From NCBI RefSeq assembly GCF_900113545.1, contig NZ_FOPS01000006.1, positions 62,001 to 126,000 of the forward strand: DNA of 64,000 bases, written 5' to 3'. This document shows, in pieces, positions 22,835 through 27,853 of the stretch (position 1 is the first letter of the stretch; each line of letters opens with the position of its first letter). The notes below the pieces were generated by a model, which was given only the letters and a program-made list of their open reading frames with translations, ran no database searches and had not been told where the DNA came from. This stretch comes from Neisseria elongata subsp. elongata. Its GTDB lineage: Bacteria > Pseudomonadota > Gammaproteobacteria > Burkholderiales > Neisseriaceae. A program made the translations under genes and the position numbers.

Positions 22835-23233
22835 ATGTCCATTTCACTCGTCCAATACGGCCAATACCTGCAATATATGTTCTCATCCATACTGATGCTG
22901 CTGGTTTTCGGCACGGTTTACCTGAAAATCACGCCGGTGCGCGAACTGAAGCTGATTAAAAACGGCAACCTCGCCTGCGCCCTCTCCTTCGGCGGCGCAC
23001 TGGTCGGATTCTGCCTGCCGCTGGCATCCAGCATCGCCCACAGCGTCAGCCTGCCCGACTTCGTCCTGTGGGGCGCGGCCGCCGCCGTGTTGCAGATTTT
23101 GGTGTACTTCGCCGCCACCCGCCTGATTCCGCAGGCGTCTGACGAACTGGCGGGCAACAATGTCGCCGCCGGTACCCTGTTCGGCTCGATTTCCATAGCC
23201 ATCGGCCTGCTCAACGCCGCCTGTCTGTCTTAA
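22835..23233 (+). CDS. DUF350 membrane protein
   Basis: The 132-residue protein has four membrane helices (about 15-32, 48-68, 74-93 and 107-128). The DUF350 signature is visible as ALSFGGALVGFCLPLASSI, and the same pattern recurs in NNVAAGTLFGSISIAIGLLN, as expected for the duplicated half. It begins a five-gene run, 15 bases before the SPFH gene. DUF350 genes are known to cluster with SPFH, DUF4178, AdoMet decarboxylase and PspA-type genes in envelope-stress loci. The molecular function is unknown. Confidence 0.85.
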   Translation: MSISLVQYGQYLQYMFSSILMLLVFGTVYLKITPVRELKLIKNGNLACALSFGGALVGFCLPLASSIAHSVSLPDFVLWGAAAAVLQILVYFAATRLIPQASDELAGNNVAAGTLFGSISIAIGLLNAACLS

Positions 23234-23248
23234 CGAAAGGACTCCTCC

Positions 23249-24277
23249 ATGTTCAACTTTATCAAGAAGCAGTTCATCGACATCATCCAGTGGGAAAATC
23301 CCGACGAGGAAACCCTGGTATGGCGTTTTCCCATTGCCGACCAGGAAATCCAAAACGGCGCCAGCCTGACCGTGCGCGAGGCGCAGATGGCGATGTTTGT
23401 GGACGAAGGTAGAACCGCCGACGTATTCCCCGCCGGCCGCTACACGCTCAACACACAAACCCTGCCCATCCTGACCTACCTGAAAAACTGGGACAAACTC
23501 TTCCAATCCCCGTTCAAATCCGACGTTTATTTCTTCAACACCAAACAGCAGCTCGGCCGCAAATGGGGCACGGCGCAACCCGTTACCGTGCGCGATGCCG
23601 AATTCGGCGCGGTGCAACTGCGCTCCTTCGGCATGTACAGCTACCGCATCGCCGACCCGGAAAAATTCTTTAAAGAAGTCAGCGGCGTTGTGGAAAGCTA
23701 CACCGGCGCACAGCTCGAACAGCAGCTGCGCAACCTCGCCGTTACCCAGCTTGCCACCGCCTTCGGCACTTCCGGCATCCCCTTCCTCGACATGGCCGCC
23801 AACCAAGTCCTGCTGTCGCAGCAACTGACCGGCCTGCTCGCGCCCGAGTTTGCCAAACTCGGCCTCACGCTGGAAAACTTCACCGTTGAAAGCATCAGCC
23901 TGCCGGAGAACATCCAAAAAGCACTCGACAAAAAAATCTCCATGGGCATCGTCGGCGACATGGGCAAATTCGCCCAATACCAAACCGCCGAGTCCATCAC
24001 CATGGCGGCGCAAAACGAAGGCGGCTTGGCCGGCATCGGCGCAGGCTTGGGCGTGGGCGCAGGCATCGGGCAAACCGTGGCGGGCGCAATGGCCGGCATG
24101 ATGCAGCCCGCGGCAGCAGGTGCCGCCGCAGCCGCAACGGCAACCGCCGCCCCGGCTGCCGCAGAAGACCCTCAGGCCAAACTGCAAAAACTGAAAGGCC
24201 TGCTCGACGGCGGCCTGATTTCCGCCGACGACTACGAAAAAGCCAAAGCCGAGGTATTAAAACAACTCATCAATTAA
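23249..24277 (+). CDS. SPFH-domain protein with C-terminal SHOCT module (YdjI-like)
   Basis: The 342-residue protein opens with FNFIKKQFIDIIQW, typical of the virion-core/YdjI group of SPFH proteins. The SPFH domain spans about 25-260, including FPAGRYTL and LRSFGMYSYRIADPEKFF. A Gly/Ala-rich segment (about 265-305) leads to a SHOCT-type bihelical end, LQKLKGLLDGGLISADDYEK. It has no strong membrane helix. SPFH oligomers usually form a membrane-associated scaffold, and the SHOCT end may bind partners at the membrane. AAAGGACTCCTCC before the ATG is a strong ribosome site. The gene probably shares a transcript with the DUF350 gene. Confidence 0.87.
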   Translation: MFNFIKKQFIDIIQWENPDEETLVWRFPIADQEIQNGASLTVREAQMAMFVDEGRTADVFPAGRYTLNTQTLPILTYLKNWDKLFQSPFKSDVYFFNTKQQLGRKWGTAQPVTVRDAEFGAVQLRSFGMYSYRIADPEKFFKEVSGVVESYTGAQLEQQLRNLAVTQLATAFGTSGIPFLDMAANQVLLSQQLTGLLAPEFAKLGLTLENFTVESISLPENIQKALDKKISMGIVGDMGKFAQYQTAESITMAAQNEGGLAGIGAGLGVGAGIGQTVAGAMAGMMQPAAAGAAAAATATAAPAAAEDPQAKLQKLKGLLDGGLISADDYEKAKAEVLKQLIN

Positions 24278-24289
24278 ACGGCGGCAAAA

Positions 24290-24328
24290 GGCCGTCTGAA
24301 AAACCGTTTCCTTTTTTTCAGACGGCCT
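24290..24328. terminator. DUS-pair hairpin
   Basis: AGGCCGTCTGAAAAACC pairs imperfectly with a T-rich complement after the SPFH gene. It divides the cluster into two blocks. 24329-24533 holds two further DUS and nothing else recognised. Confidence 0.6.
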
Positions 24329-24533
24329 CACATCACAACAAACAAACCGCAATACGCAAACAGGGCCGGCCTTCCCCATCATTTCGGCGCATGAGGAAAA
24401 GCAGCAAAAGGCAGCCCGTTTGCCAACCGCCCTTCAGCGGTTAATACCGCCAAAATCCGTTTTCAGACGGCCTCACATTCAAAAGGCCGTCTGAAAAAAG
24501 CCGAAAGCCGACCGACAAAACAAGGAAGCCTCC

Positions 24534-25634
24534 GTGCCGAAACATCCGCCCACCCTGCCGCCCGAAGTCCTGACGGAAAGCAGCCGCCAAATGCTGCAAC
24601 GTCTGACGCGCGAACTAGAAGCGGGCGCAGACGCATTATGGTTTGCCTGCCCGTCGCCGTACTTGGATGCCGCAAGCGGCAGGAAAGTTTCCCGCATCAT
24701 GCTGGCCGCCGACGTATTGCTGCTGGCGGCATGGATGCTGCCGAAAACGCCCCAGCTGTTCGGGCTGCTGATTTTATTGTCCGTCGTAGCCACCGTATTC
24801 AGCCTATTTTGGTTCGACGGCAAAATGGCGGACGGCATCCCTTACTTGATTCCCGACTCCGGAAACCTCAGGACGGAAAACATGTATTCCTTCCGGCCTC
24901 AGGATTTCGTTCGCCTCGATTTGGCCAACGCCCGCCTGCAACGCTACCACCACAACAAAATCGGTGAAACGCTGCAACTCGACGGCCATTTCGGCCTATG
25001 GCTGCCCAAAGGCGGCTGCATCGTAATGCTGACCCACGCCTCGGCCGGCGAAAAAGGCTACCTCATGATGCCCTACGGCGCGGATTACACAGAAACCTCA
25101 GCCTTCTGCCGCCTGCTCTGCCTGCGGCTGGGCCTGCGCGACAACCTCGACGTCGGCAACACTCCGCCCGACAGCGGAAACGTCCGCCGCGACAAAAGCG
25201 CGAAAATCGCCGTTATCTGCATCATGGCACTGCTTGCCGCCGTCGGGCTGGCCGTCATCGCCGCCGGCATTTCCCACCGCCGGCAGGAAATAACCGCGCC
25301 CGACCGCGAAATCCGCATGACGCAGGCGCAACTGAACGCCCAGTACACCTGCTTCAAAAACCGCCGCACCGACAGAACCGTCGTCTGCCGCCACCGCCTG
25401 ATTGCCGAGGGACGCGACGGCGAACTGCGGCAAATCGACTGCCTCGGTTTGGAAGACAGCCTGTGCGGCCGTGAACAACCGGCCCGCTTCGGCCCCGCCG
25501 ACCTGCGCCTGCTGAGCCGTGCGGGCACGACTTATTTGATAGAGGCCGACTACCGCCTCCCCGAAACCGGCCGCACCGCACACTTAGACAACCGTGCCGC
25601 CCTACCCCAAACGCCGCCCGCAACGGCGGAATAA
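24534..25634 (+). CDS. Hypothetical membrane protein of the SPFH/DUF4178 cluster
   Basis: The 366-residue protein starts at GTG 24534, supported by AAGGAAG eight bases upstream. Two membrane helices at about 54-70 and 75-94 precede a soluble beta-rich stretch (about 110-200) that could be a PH-like domain. A third helix at about 224-246 is followed by a C-terminal region with four cysteines (CFKNRR, VVCRHR, DCLGLEDSLCG), probably disulphides on the outside. I do not recognise a named family. Its position between the SPFH and DUF4178 genes suggests it is part of the same membrane system. Confidence 0.7.
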   Translation: MPKHPPTLPPEVLTESSRQMLQRLTRELEAGADALWFACPSPYLDAASGRKVSRIMLAADVLLLAAWMLPKTPQLFGLLILLSVVATVFSLFWFDGKMADGIPYLIPDSGNLRTENMYSFRPQDFVRLDLANARLQRYHHNKIGETLQLDGHFGLWLPKGGCIVMLTHASAGEKGYLMMPYGADYTETSAFCRLLCLRLGLRDNLDVGNTPPDSGNVRRDKSAKIAVICIMALLAAVGLAVIAAGISHRRQEITAPDREIRMTQAQLNAQYTCFKNRRTDRTVVCRHRLIAEGRDGELRQIDCLGLEDSLCGREQPARFGPADLRLLSRAGTTYLIEADYRLPETGRTAHLDNRAALPQTPPATAE

Positions 25635-25635
25635 C

Positions 25636-25679
25636 TTTTCAGACGGCCTCCTGCCGCATACAAAGAGGCCGTCTGAAAA
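25636..25679. repeat. DUS inverted pair
   Basis: A 15-bp stem made of two uptake words lies between two same-strand genes, TTTTCAGACGGCCTC and its complement. It may attenuate read-through into the DUF4178 gene. Confidence 0.6.
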
Positions 25680-25725
25680 CCAAAACCTTATAATTGGCCA
25701 CCCGCCCGCCTAGGAAATACCGACC

Positions 25726-27405
25726 ATGAGCGAACCCTTCTTCCATACCGACTGCCCAAGCTGCGGCGCACCCGTACACGCCCATTCCCCCACCTCGGTT
25801 ACGCTGGTCTGCGGCTACTGCAACAGCATGTTGGTACGCCAAGACGGCGGCATCATCGACAAAGGCCGCGACTCCGCCCTGTTGGAAGACTTCAGCCCGC
25901 TGCAAATCGGCACGCGCGGCCGCTACGGCACGGCCGCGTTCAACATCATCGGCCGTTTGCAGATGCACTACGACGCGGGCGTGTGGAACGAATGGCACAT
26001 CCTGTTCGACGAAGGCGGCACGGGCTGGCTGTCCGAATCCGGCGACATCTATTCCCTGACCCGCCCGCAAACCGAATCCGCACTCCGACTCCCCCCCTTC
26101 GACGACATCCGCGCCGGCTTCTCCACCCTCGACTACAACGGCAAACGCTTCATGGCCGCCGACGTGCGCCGCGTCACGATGAAGCACGCCGCCGCGCAAG
26201 GCGAGCTGCCGTTTGAATTCAACCGCGACATCGAAAGCCGAACCGCAGACTGGCGTTGCGAAAACCTCTTCCTCACCACCGACTACGGCGACGACCCGCC
26301 GTCCCTCTACATCGGCAACACCGTCAAACTCGACGACCTGCAACTGGAAAACCTGCGCACCGAAGACCAAATCGCCGCCGGCGCAGGCCGTCTGAAAGGC
26401 ACGCGCCAATCCGAAAACTGCCCCAACTGCGGCTCGCCCGTACACTGGGTGGACGGATTGGCCAACAACATCCTCTGCCCGAGCTGCGGCAGCGACCTAG
26501 AAGCCGTCGACGGCACAGTCGAACTCATCGAAGCCGACGCCATGCGCGCCGCCCAGCAAAAAGCACTTACCCTGCCTATCGGCAGCAGGGGCAAACTGCG
26601 CGGCCGCAACTACATCGTCATCGGCGCGGTACACAAAGAAGAACTCGACGCCCAAACGGCCTTCGACCTGATGTACGCCTTCAAACGCCCCACCGGCGTC
26701 GTCCCCGAAGGCCATTGGCGCGAATACCTGCTCTACCATCCGACCTCCGGCAGCTTCCTCTGGCTGATCGAATCCGACAGCGGCTGGGAAATCGCCCAAA
26801 CCCTCCACGATTGGCCACGCCTCGACCGCCACGGCCAGCCCCAGGGCGGCGACAAACTTTATGACTACGGCAGCCGTGTCGGCTATGCTGCCGGCGCGTT
26901 CTACTGGCACGTCCGCCACCGCGACCTCACCTTTCACAGCGACTACAAAAGCGGCAAAGGCAAAATCGGCTCCGAACTGTCCGTAAACGAAATCGCCTGG
27001 AGCCGCAGCGAACCCGCAAGCAAACGCGAAATTGCCGAAGCCTTCGGCCTACCGACGGCCGCGATGAACACCCTGTCTGGCGACGACCGGCAAACCCCGT
27101 CGGGCATCGTCTGGATTACCCTCGCCCTCCTGTGCGTCCTCAACCTGCCCGCCTTCCTCTACGGCGACGGCGAATGGACAGCAATCACCGTCGGCATCGC
27201 GGGCTTTTATCTCTATAACTTCGGCATGGCATCGGAAGACGGCGCAGTTCCTTCGCTCTCGCGCTTCCTCACCGTCAGCCTGATAGTCGTCTCACTGGCC
27301 ACCGGCCTGAACTATATGTTTTCCAACACCGACAGCAGCGGTTACAGCGGCTATAACAGCAGCGGCGGCTATTACGGCGGCGGCTTCTCCGGAGGCCACA
27401 AATGA
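25726..27405 (+). CDS. Tandem zinc-ribbon/DUF4178 membrane protein
   Basis: The 559-residue protein has two repeats of zinc ribbon plus DUF4178. Ribbon 1 uses C10, C13, C29 and C32 and is followed by a DUF4178 unit (about 55-205). Ribbon 2 uses C232, C235, C251 and C254, with its unit at about 278-425. The start of each unit is alike: LQIGTRGRYGTAAFNIIGR and LPIGSRGKLRGRNYIVIGA. Three membrane helices follow (about 466-485, 488-507, 515-537) and then a Gly/Tyr/Ser-rich tail ending [12 protein letters not shown]4178 has no established activity. The stop overlaps the speD start by 4 bases (ATGA), so the two are translationally coupled. Confidence 0.85.
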   Translation: MSEPFFHTDCPSCGAPVHAHSPTSVTLVCGYCNSMLVRQDGGIIDKGRDSALLEDFSPLQIGTRGRYGTAAFNIIGRLQMHYDAGVWNEWHILFDEGGTGWLSESGDIYSLTRPQTESALRLPPFDDIRAGFSTLDYNGKRFMAADVRRVTMKHAAAQGELPFEFNRDIESRTADWRCENLFLTTDYGDDPPSLYIGNTVKLDDLQLENLRTEDQIAAGAGRLKGTRQSENCPNCGSPVHWVDGLANNILCPSCGSDLEAVDGTVELIEADAMRAAQQKALTLPIGSRGKLRGRNYIVIGAVHKEELDAQTAFDLMYAFKRPTGVVPEGHWREYLLYHPTSGSFLWLIESDSGWEIAQTLHDWPRLDRHGQPQGGDKLYDYGSRVGYAAGAFYWHVRHRDLTFHSDYKSGKGKIGSELSVNEIAWSRSEPASKREIAEAFGLPTAAMNTLSGDDRQTPSGIVWITLALLCVLNLPAFLYGDGEWTAITVGIAGFYLYNFGMASEDGAVPSLSRFLTVSLIVVSLATGLNYMFSNTDSSGYSGYNSSGGYYGGGFSGGHK

Positions 27406-27806
27406 CCCGCAGCCTCAGCCGCCACGGCCTGCTCGACCTTTACGGCTGCAACCCCGCCCTCCTGCGCGACGAAGGCCGTCTGAAAACCATCCTTGCCGCC
27501 GCCGCCGAAGCCGCTCAGGCCACCGTGCTCGACAGCCGATTCCACACCTTCGGCGGCGCAGGCGGCGTAACCGGCGTACTGCTGTTGGCCGAATCGCACA
27601 TCAGCATCCACACCTGGCCGGAATACGGCTTCGCCGCCGTCGATGTCTTCCTCTGCGGCCGGATGCCGTCTGAAAACGCCCGCCGCGTCCTCGAAGAAGC
27701 ACTGGGCGCAAAACGTGCAGAATGGCGGAACATCCCGCGCGGCAATGCCGCATCCGTTGCCGGAAACCCGCTTTCAGACGGCCTCACCATCGAAAAGGCC
27801 GTCTGA
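27402..27806 (+). CDS. speD: S-adenosylmethionine decarboxylase-like proenzyme (class 1B)
   Basis: The 134-residue protein is of the short bacterial SpeD type. The self-cleavage site is E64-S65 in [14 protein letters not shown], which would generate the pyruvoyl group. H70 and the catalytic Cys85 in VDVFLCG are present, so the protein looks active. Family enzymes make decarboxylated AdoMet for aminopropyl transfer in spermidine synthesis. Its partner here is the DUF4178 membrane protein, not a spermidine synthase (none is present in the window). It may therefore serve a cluster-specific role. The C-terminal 10 residues are encoded by a DUS pair, a sign that the 3' end has drifted. Confidence 0.87.
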
Positions 27807-27853
27807 AAGCGCGGCTGCGGCGAAGCTAAAACACAAGCATCCCGGCCGAAGGT

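What the first reader, a model, noticed from the sequence alone, without database searches (positions are those of the whole stretch)
22835..27806. DUF350 - SPFH/SHOCT - membrane protein - zinc-ribbon DUF4178 - AdoMet decarboxylase cluster
Five same-strand genes combine four membrane or membrane-linked proteins with a SpeD enzyme translationally coupled to the DUF4178 protein. Related associations have been noted in envelope-stress gene neighbourhoods, but no activity is known. Here the spermidine synthase partner is absent and an unrecognised three-helix protein is added. It may be a polyamine-linked membrane-protection or defence system.
Basis: partly seen in the sequence, partly recalled or inferred. 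Interest (0 to 1): 0.75.

Follow-up and report, generated by a model that had tools for sequence, protein, structure and literature searches.

The report
Membrane aminopropyl-transfer gene set in Neisseria
Five neighbouring genes in a Neisseria genome include four of a known but unexplained six-gene set that probably uses a polyamine-type reaction to modify something at the cell membrane; the supposedly missing synthase is present elsewhere in the same genome.

Summary
The genes are real and correctly placed. DUF350, SPFH/SHOCT, DUF4178 and SpeD are one arm of a divergon, [SpeD<DUF4178<SPFH<DUF350][SpeE fusion>FAD amine oxidase]; all six lie together in 59 of the 80 named loci examined. "Spermidine synthase absent" holds only locally: this genome has a membrane-aminopropyltransferase fusion on contig C10 and a twin-arginine oxidase on C5. 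In 36 same-genus genomes the six genes are all found (15) or all missing (21), at up to three places; on a two-marker tree the set changed state at least five times. The three-helix protein is a lineage-specific insertion. SpeD keeps AdoMet-decarboxylase residues; the fusion keeps an aminopropyltransferase core. Best reading: SpeD feeds decarboxylated AdoMet to a membrane aminopropyltransferase whose acceptor is probably not putrescine; the exported oxidase acts on the product; DUF350, SPFH and DUF4178 form the scaffold. No activity was tested. The kind is in print (Li et al. 2019, recalled; PMC11237479, passages). New here are the dispersed Neisseria form and the all-or-none retention. Nothing found supports phage defence.

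The parts
22835..23233 (+). DUF350 (YjfL-like) small multi-TM protein, 132 aa
   Evidence: PF03994 E 4.8e-36; hydrophobic segments
23249..24277 (+). SPFH/Band_7_1 protein with C-terminal SHOCT, 342 aa
   Evidence: PF13421 E 3.7e-74, SHOCT 6e-06, under its cut-off; most of it lies in a 92-99% identical DNA tract shared with genome G013
24289..24328 (.). Inverted pair of DNA uptake sequences, hairpin-forming, possible end of the DUF350-SPFH unit (inferred)
   Evidence: read in sequence, positions; terminator scan not above shuffles
24534..25634 (+). Unrecognised protein with three hydrophobic segments, 366 aa, GTG start; lineage-specific insertion, not a member of the conserved set
   Evidence: no Pfam, no PDB; matches in 5 of 60 genomes; 0 of 80 loci; dN 0.026, dS 0.052 against G013
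25638..25677 (.). Inverted pair of DNA uptake sequences between the middle gene and DUF4178
25726..27405 (+). DUF4178 protein, 559 aa: two Cys4 zinc-ribbon-like motifs, two DUF4178 stretches, C-terminal hydrophobic segments
   Evidence: PF13785 5.2e-17, two stretches; 8 Cys invariant in 40 of 40 sequences; AF2 model pLDDT 80.9
27402..27806 (+). SpeD, class 1b-size AdoMet decarboxylase proenzyme, 134 aa, start overlapping the DUF4178 stop
   Evidence: PF02675 2.1e-36, TIGR03330; Ser/His/Cys/Pro of the T. maritima enzyme conserved
27773..27807 (.). Inverted pair of DNA uptake sequences at the end of speD

Best explanation
The cluster holds four of six genes of a conserved membrane aminopropyl-transfer system. 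SpeD self-cleaves and decarboxylates AdoMet. The decarboxylated AdoMet is used by a membrane-anchored aminopropyltransferase, encoded on another contig here, to add an aminopropyl group to an acceptor that is probably not free putrescine and is probably membrane-associated (lipid head group, lipoprotein or exported amine). A twin-arginine-exported FAD amine oxidase, encoded on a third contig, then oxidises the product in the periplasm. DUF350, the SPFH/SHOCT protein and the DUF4178 zinc-ribbon membrane protein hold the complex at the inner membrane. Shown by computation: family membership, conserved catalytic residues, predicted fold of the transferase domain, export-type motif, gene order, all-or-none co-retention. 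Inferred: that the enzymes act in one pathway, the acceptor, the oxidase substrate, the scaffold role.
For: All six genes are found in the same 15 of 36 same-genus genomes and in none of the other 21, apart from one oxidase scrap, with at least five state changes on a two-marker tree, even where the genes sit at two or three separate places. All six lie together in 59 of 80 named loci around the SpeE fusion, 58 of them in one order. SpeD aligns with T. maritima AdoMetDC and keeps the processing/catalytic Ser, His, Cys and a Pro (criteria from PMC10407285 section 7). The model of the relative L101's fusion has seven long N-terminal helices and an aminopropyltransferase domain; best PDB match is T. 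thermophilus aminopropyltransferase 1uir, E 3.4e-17, TM-score by target 0.74. GGGDG, LQFSSRDE.RYH and D-PDP motifs are invariant in 8 of 8; GGGDG, LQF, DE.RYH and D-PDP also in 33 of 33. Oxidase: PF01593 E 6.8e-09 for the Snodgrassella copy; Arg-Arg invariant in 23 of 23; this genome's copy is 66% identical to the G008 query and starts with RRQFL in an open frame.
Against: No activity was tested. The active site looks able to take a polyamine, so spermidine or another triamine cannot be excluded by sequence. Only SpeA was checked as a putrescine source, not ornithine decarboxylases. In the wider phylum sample the link is looser: SpeD in 33 of 44 and DUF4178 in 26 of 44 genomes with the fusion; for the 28 with matches covering most of the profile (two of them in two pieces), 26 and 24. 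Nine of 80 named loci show only the fusion, some on short contigs. The oxidase is read in two frames in G014, and the DUF4178 match runs past a stop in G009, G014 and G025 and ends near residue 505 in six other genomes, so the C-terminal tail is not conserved. The TAT_signal model matches two relatives under its cut-off. The non-putrescine claim leans on Li et al. 2019, which is not held and is recalled.
Confidence: 0.62

Rival explanations
1. Ordinary spermidine synthesis: SpeD and a membrane-anchored spermidine synthase make spermidine from putrescine, and the other genes handle its export and oxidation.
For: Canonical SpeD residues and an aminopropyltransferase fold closest to triamine/agmatine and spermidine synthases.
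Against: Biosynthetic SpeA is over its cut-off in only 3 of 15 set-bearing genomes but in 14 of 21 same-genus genomes without the set; this genome has no match over the cut-off. Ornithine decarboxylases were not searched. Recalled from Li et al. 2019: such fusions did not restore spermidine in an E. coli speE mutant.
Confidence: 0.17
2. A PSP-like envelope-stress system in which polyamine chemistry is only a signal and the SPFH/DUF350/DUF4178 complex does the membrane protection.
For: PMC11237479 sections 19-20 (passages) propose this for related operons; SPFH, DUF350 and DUF4178 are as strictly co-retained as the enzymes.
Against: No PspA or CesT/Tir domain among the five window proteins; PspA was not searched in the genome. 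Strict retention of three enzymes suggests a chemical product, not only sensing (inference).
Confidence: 0.13
3. SpeD has become an arginine or ornithine decarboxylase, supplying the agmatine or putrescine that SpeA-less genomes lack.
For: 12 of 15 set-bearing genomes have no SpeA match over the cut-off; such SpeD variants exist (PMC10407285, abstract, section 7 and passages).
Against: The conserved Pro and catalytic residues match bona fide AdoMetDC, and an aminopropyltransferase fusion accompanies SpeD in 15 of 15 same-genus genomes. The four ODC marker positions could not be checked, the figure not being held.
Confidence: 0.04
4. An anti-phage defence system.
Against: No PADLOC model matches the five window proteins or the oxidase at E <= 0.01; one gene order in 58 of 80 named loci. 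No phage test was possible.
Confidence: 0.02

Closest known systems
AdoMetDC / MFS-spermidine-synthase-like fusion / DUF350 clusters (Li, Kurihara, Kim, Liang, Michael 2019, Biochem J 476:2579; reference seen in the list of PMC11237479, content recalled)
   Same: Class 1b SpeD, a membrane-SpdSyn fusion and DUF350 in one genome.
   Different: Here the fusion and oxidase are on other contigs; SPFH, DUF4178 and the oxidase are co-retained with them in all 15 same-genus carriers searched.
CesT/Tir-PspA operon group with 7TM-spermidine synthase, DUF350 and DUF4178 (PMC11237479 section 19, passages)
   Same: 7TM-SpeE fusion, DUF350, DUF4178.
   Different: No PspA or CesT/Tir domain among the five window proteins; Band_7/SHOCT and SpeD stand there.
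Variant operon with Band_7 + 2TM + SHOCT, AdoMet decarboxylase and polyamine oxidase (same section, passages)
   Same: Band_7/SHOCT, SpeD, FAD amine oxidase, DUF350.
   Different: That variant is described with an ATP-grasp ligase, DUF1190 and DUF2491, none among the five window proteins and not searched elsewhere; DUF4178 and the 7TM-SpeE fusion take part here. No TM segment was seen in this SPFH protein.

Membership tests
Class 1b AdoMet decarboxylase (SpeD) | Sequence family match over curated cut-off | tested here: met
   PF02675 125 bits (cut-off 25), TIGR03330 123.7 bits (cut-off 75.65)
Class 1b AdoMet decarboxylase (SpeD) | Pyruvoyl Ser, His and Cys of T. maritima S63/H68/C83 and the conserved Pro | tested here: met
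   alignment with 1tlu/1vr7; invariant in 9 of 9; criteria from PMC10407285 section 7, its Figure 8 not seen
Class 1b AdoMet decarboxylase (SpeD) | Self-cleavage and AdoMet decarboxylation | not testable with these tools
   needs protein
SpeD / membrane-SpdSyn fusion / DUF350 system | Membrane domain fused to SpdSyn-like domain in the same genome as SpeD | tested here: met
   C10:369168-370673, hydrophobic N-terminal segments; seven long helices in the model of the relative L101
SpeD / membrane-SpdSyn fusion / DUF350 system | DUF350 present | tested here: met
   window 22835-23233, PF03994 E 4.8e-36
SpeD / membrane-SpdSyn fusion / DUF350 system | All genes clustered (usual; as I recall the paper, presence in one genome is what defines it) | tested here: not met
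   in this genome the set is on three contigs (C12, C10, C5); clustered in G014 and G025 and in 59 of 80 named loci
SpeD / membrane-SpdSyn fusion / DUF350 system | Fusion does not make spermidine | not testable with these tools
   recalled from Li et al. 2019; not held
PSP system | PspA present with the partners | not tested
   no PspA domain in the five window proteins; no genome-wide PspA search was made
SpeD-derived ADC (SpeDA) | Loss of the conserved Pro | tested here: not met
   Pro73 kept, 9 of 9
Anti-phage defence | Match to known or candidate defence proteins | tested here: not met
   no match for 6 of 7 proteins; the SpeE fusion matches mad2 (E 7.7e-19) over residues 279-429, its methyltransferase-like fold

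The most novel reading that the evidence does not exclude
A write-and-erase membrane modification: the inner-leaflet enzyme aminopropylates a lipid head group or lipoprotein with decarboxylated AdoMet, changing surface charge, and the periplasmic twin-arginine FAD oxidase removes or oxidises the added amine, all organised by an SPFH/DUF4178/DUF350 microdomain. This would be a new kind of lipid or protein modification that some Neisseria lineages gained or lost as one unit.
Probability: 0.2. Interest if true: 0.82.

Novelty: new member of a known kind. Interest (0 to 1): 0.45.

Why it matters
Decarboxylated AdoMet is generally thought to serve polyamine synthesis only (recalled). A six-gene set kept or lost as a unit through a genus, even when its genes lie at different places, makes the open question of a second use testable: which molecule carries the extra aminopropyl group? 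The sister pair G014 and G032 (without) and the G003/G004/G007/G019 clade without the set, nested among carriers, are natural comparisons for lipid and amine profiling.

Tried and rejected
Rejected: missing synthase (found on C10). Rejected: three-helix protein as a system member; it also matches at 31-32% identity in G016 and G017, which lack the set, and just after SPFH in G010. Not supported: defence and neofunctionalised SpeD. A second, weaker PF01564 match is present in all 36 same-genus genomes, with or without SpeD, so it is not the partner.

Led nowhere: the fold search with the DUF4178 model gave no match at E <= 0.001; weak class IV adenylate cyclase and fatty-acid-binding barrels were not used. 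The profile search of DUF4178 against PDB gave mainly zinc-ribbon proteins, best E 0.0042. Paper searches on lipid aminopropylation, on spermidine-synthase-like/band 7 operons and on AdoMetDC/MFS fusions returned no paper; DUF4178 occurs in one held paper. Neisseria with spermidine synthase and AdoMet decarboxylase gave one paper, on archaeal IF5A by its title, not opened. Neisseria with polyamine biosynthesis terms gave 21 papers, 10 listed, none opened, so a paper on Neisseria polyamines may have been missed. PMC11107197 and PMC7857480 (passages) only cite Li et al. in what I saw.
Full report
What is there. The window is contig C12:62001-126000 of a 2.36 Mb genome in 23 contigs. It carries 69 copies of the DNA uptake sequence AGGCCGTCTGAA (that this is a Neisseria signal is recalled). 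One same-genus genome, G031, has a contig of 58,125 bases that equals in length the record of locus L101, 'Neisseria sp. HMSC077D05', whose SpeE fusion is 83% identical to that of the window's genome. I therefore read the window as Neisseria; the species is not determined.

The missing partner is not missing. PF01564 finds a strong match (E 2.1e-34) on contig C10, and tblastn with a relative's protein covers residues 18-522 of 523 at 82% identity. An FAD oxidase in one open frame, with the start RRQFL, lies at C5:14647-16233. So this genome has all six genes, on three contigs.

All-or-none retention. I searched 60 genomes, 36 of them same-genus including the window's own, for each of the six genes. 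DUF4178, SpeD, the strong SpeE-fusion class at E <= 1e-32, the oxidase, Band_7_1 and DUF350 are each present in the same 15 same-genus genomes and not found in the other 21. The one exception is a 53-residue oxidase scrap with a stop in G003. Some copies are imperfect: in G014 the oxidase is read in two frames; the DUF4178 match runs past one stop in G009, G014 and G025 and ends near residue 505 in six others, so the C-terminal tail varies. A few genomes are incomplete drafts (for example G018, 68%). Gene order within the genus varies: all six together in G014 and G025; SpeE apart in G008, G009, G011, G026 and G034; oxidase apart in G005 and G030; SpeE-DUF350-SPFH at one place and DUF4178-SpeD-oxidase at another in G027 and G029; both SpeE and oxidase apart in G000 and G013. 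G010 and G031 are too fragmented to say. On a tree from LysA and a universal SpeE-like protein (36 taxa; G018 has only the second marker) the set changes state at least five times (1000 label shuffles: mean 11.8, minimum 7), so presence follows the tree but was gained or lost repeatedly. Several branches have low support and natural transformation may blur this tree.

The usual form. Within the held flanks (up to 10 kb a side, less on short contigs) all six genes occur in 59 of 80; singly SPFH 69, DUF350 68, oxidase 67, DUF4178 64, SpeD 62; the fusion alone in 9. In 58 of the 59 the order is the divergon [SpeD<DUF4178<SPFH<DUF350][SpeE>oxidase], in Massilia, Duganella, Burkholderia, Achromobacter, Cupriavidus, Zoogloea and Snodgrassella among others. 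The window's order is the left arm plus one inserted gene. The 80 were chosen by similarity to the fusion, so they are not a random sample. In 398 phylum genomes the fusion is found in 44 at E <= 1e-40. Of these, 33 have SpeD and 26 have DUF4178; of 20 listed genomes without the fusion, 2 and 0. Among the 28 matches covering most of the profile, 26 and 24; among the 16 partial ones, 7 and 2 (my sorting). Full linkage is thus a feature of the close form, not of every relative of the fusion.

The inserted protein. It is 94% identical in G013 and 31-32% in G010, G016 and G017, with no hit in the 80 loci. Between the window and G013, DNA identity is 92-99% per 200-base bin over about 23400-25800, against 49-85% in the other bins. 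SPFH and the inserted gene therefore probably moved between species together by recombination. dN/dS is about 0.5 on 35 nucleotide differences, so constraint is only weakly shown.

Enzymes. SpeD keeps the T. maritima Ser, His and Cys and the Pro (9 of 9). PMC10407285 section 7 (read) gives the three as processing and catalytic residues and a Pro as distinguishing AdoMetDC from ADC; Figure 8 is not held, so I matched the one Pro that is invariant. The fusion model of L101 (pLDDT 87.3) has seven long helices and then an aminopropyltransferase domain (1uir, E 3.4e-17). Biosynthetic SpeA is over its cut-off in 17 of 36 same-genus genomes: 3 of 15 with the set, 14 of 21 without, and not in this one. 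That argues weakly against an ordinary putrescine-to-spermidine route; ornithine decarboxylases were not searched. The oxidase profile's PDB matches are mostly amine and amino-acid oxidases by short N-terminal FAD-site stretches, with a putrescine oxidase over profile positions 57-356.

Literature. PMC11237479 (passages) describes operons joining a 7TM-spermidine-synthase fusion, DUF350 and DUF4178 with PspA-CesT/Tir, and a variant with Band_7-2TM-SHOCT, AdoMet decarboxylase and polyamine oxidase. It suggests polyamine monitoring or aminopropylation of other substrates. It cites Li et al. [quoted passage not shown] From recall, its abstract reports thousands of class 1b AdoMetDC homologues in genomes with an MFS-SpdSyn-like fusion, with DUF350 clustered, no spermidine, and no complementation of an E. 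coli SpdSyn mutant. The kind is therefore known. The searches listed no paper whose title names this set in Neisseria; most listed papers were not opened.

Verdict. Known in kind, informative in form: a functionally open system, dispersed in this genome but co-retained. The best mechanism is membrane-linked aminopropyl transfer to an unknown acceptor, with an exported oxidase acting on the product.

Noticed in passing
window 23400-25800: Tract of 92-99% DNA identity to genome G013 in a 49-85% background, covering most of SPFH and the inserted gene: probable interspecies recombination; DNA uptake sequences lie inside it.
   Followed up: partly
L070:9066-9572 (G013): Partial tandem copy (169 residues, 96%) of the inserted three-helix gene beside the full copy.
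   Followed up: no
L068, L077, L078, L081 (G008, G034, G011, G026): A second, diverged DUF4178 gene (44-47% over its main piece) downstream of SpeD; in G034 it is in pieces.
   Followed up: no
L066:6509-7243 (G014): A NERD-domain protein (PF08378 E 7.6e-30) sits between SPFH and DUF4178, where the window has its inserted gene.
   Followed up: no
G003:C2:182184-182342: 53-residue oxidase remnant with a stop in a genome lacking the set, suggesting loss rather than never-had.
   Followed up: partly
36 same-genus genomes: Biosynthetic arginine decarboxylase and the six-gene set tend to exclude each other: SpeA in 3 of 15 carriers against 14 of 21 non-carriers; not corrected for kinship.
   Followed up: partly
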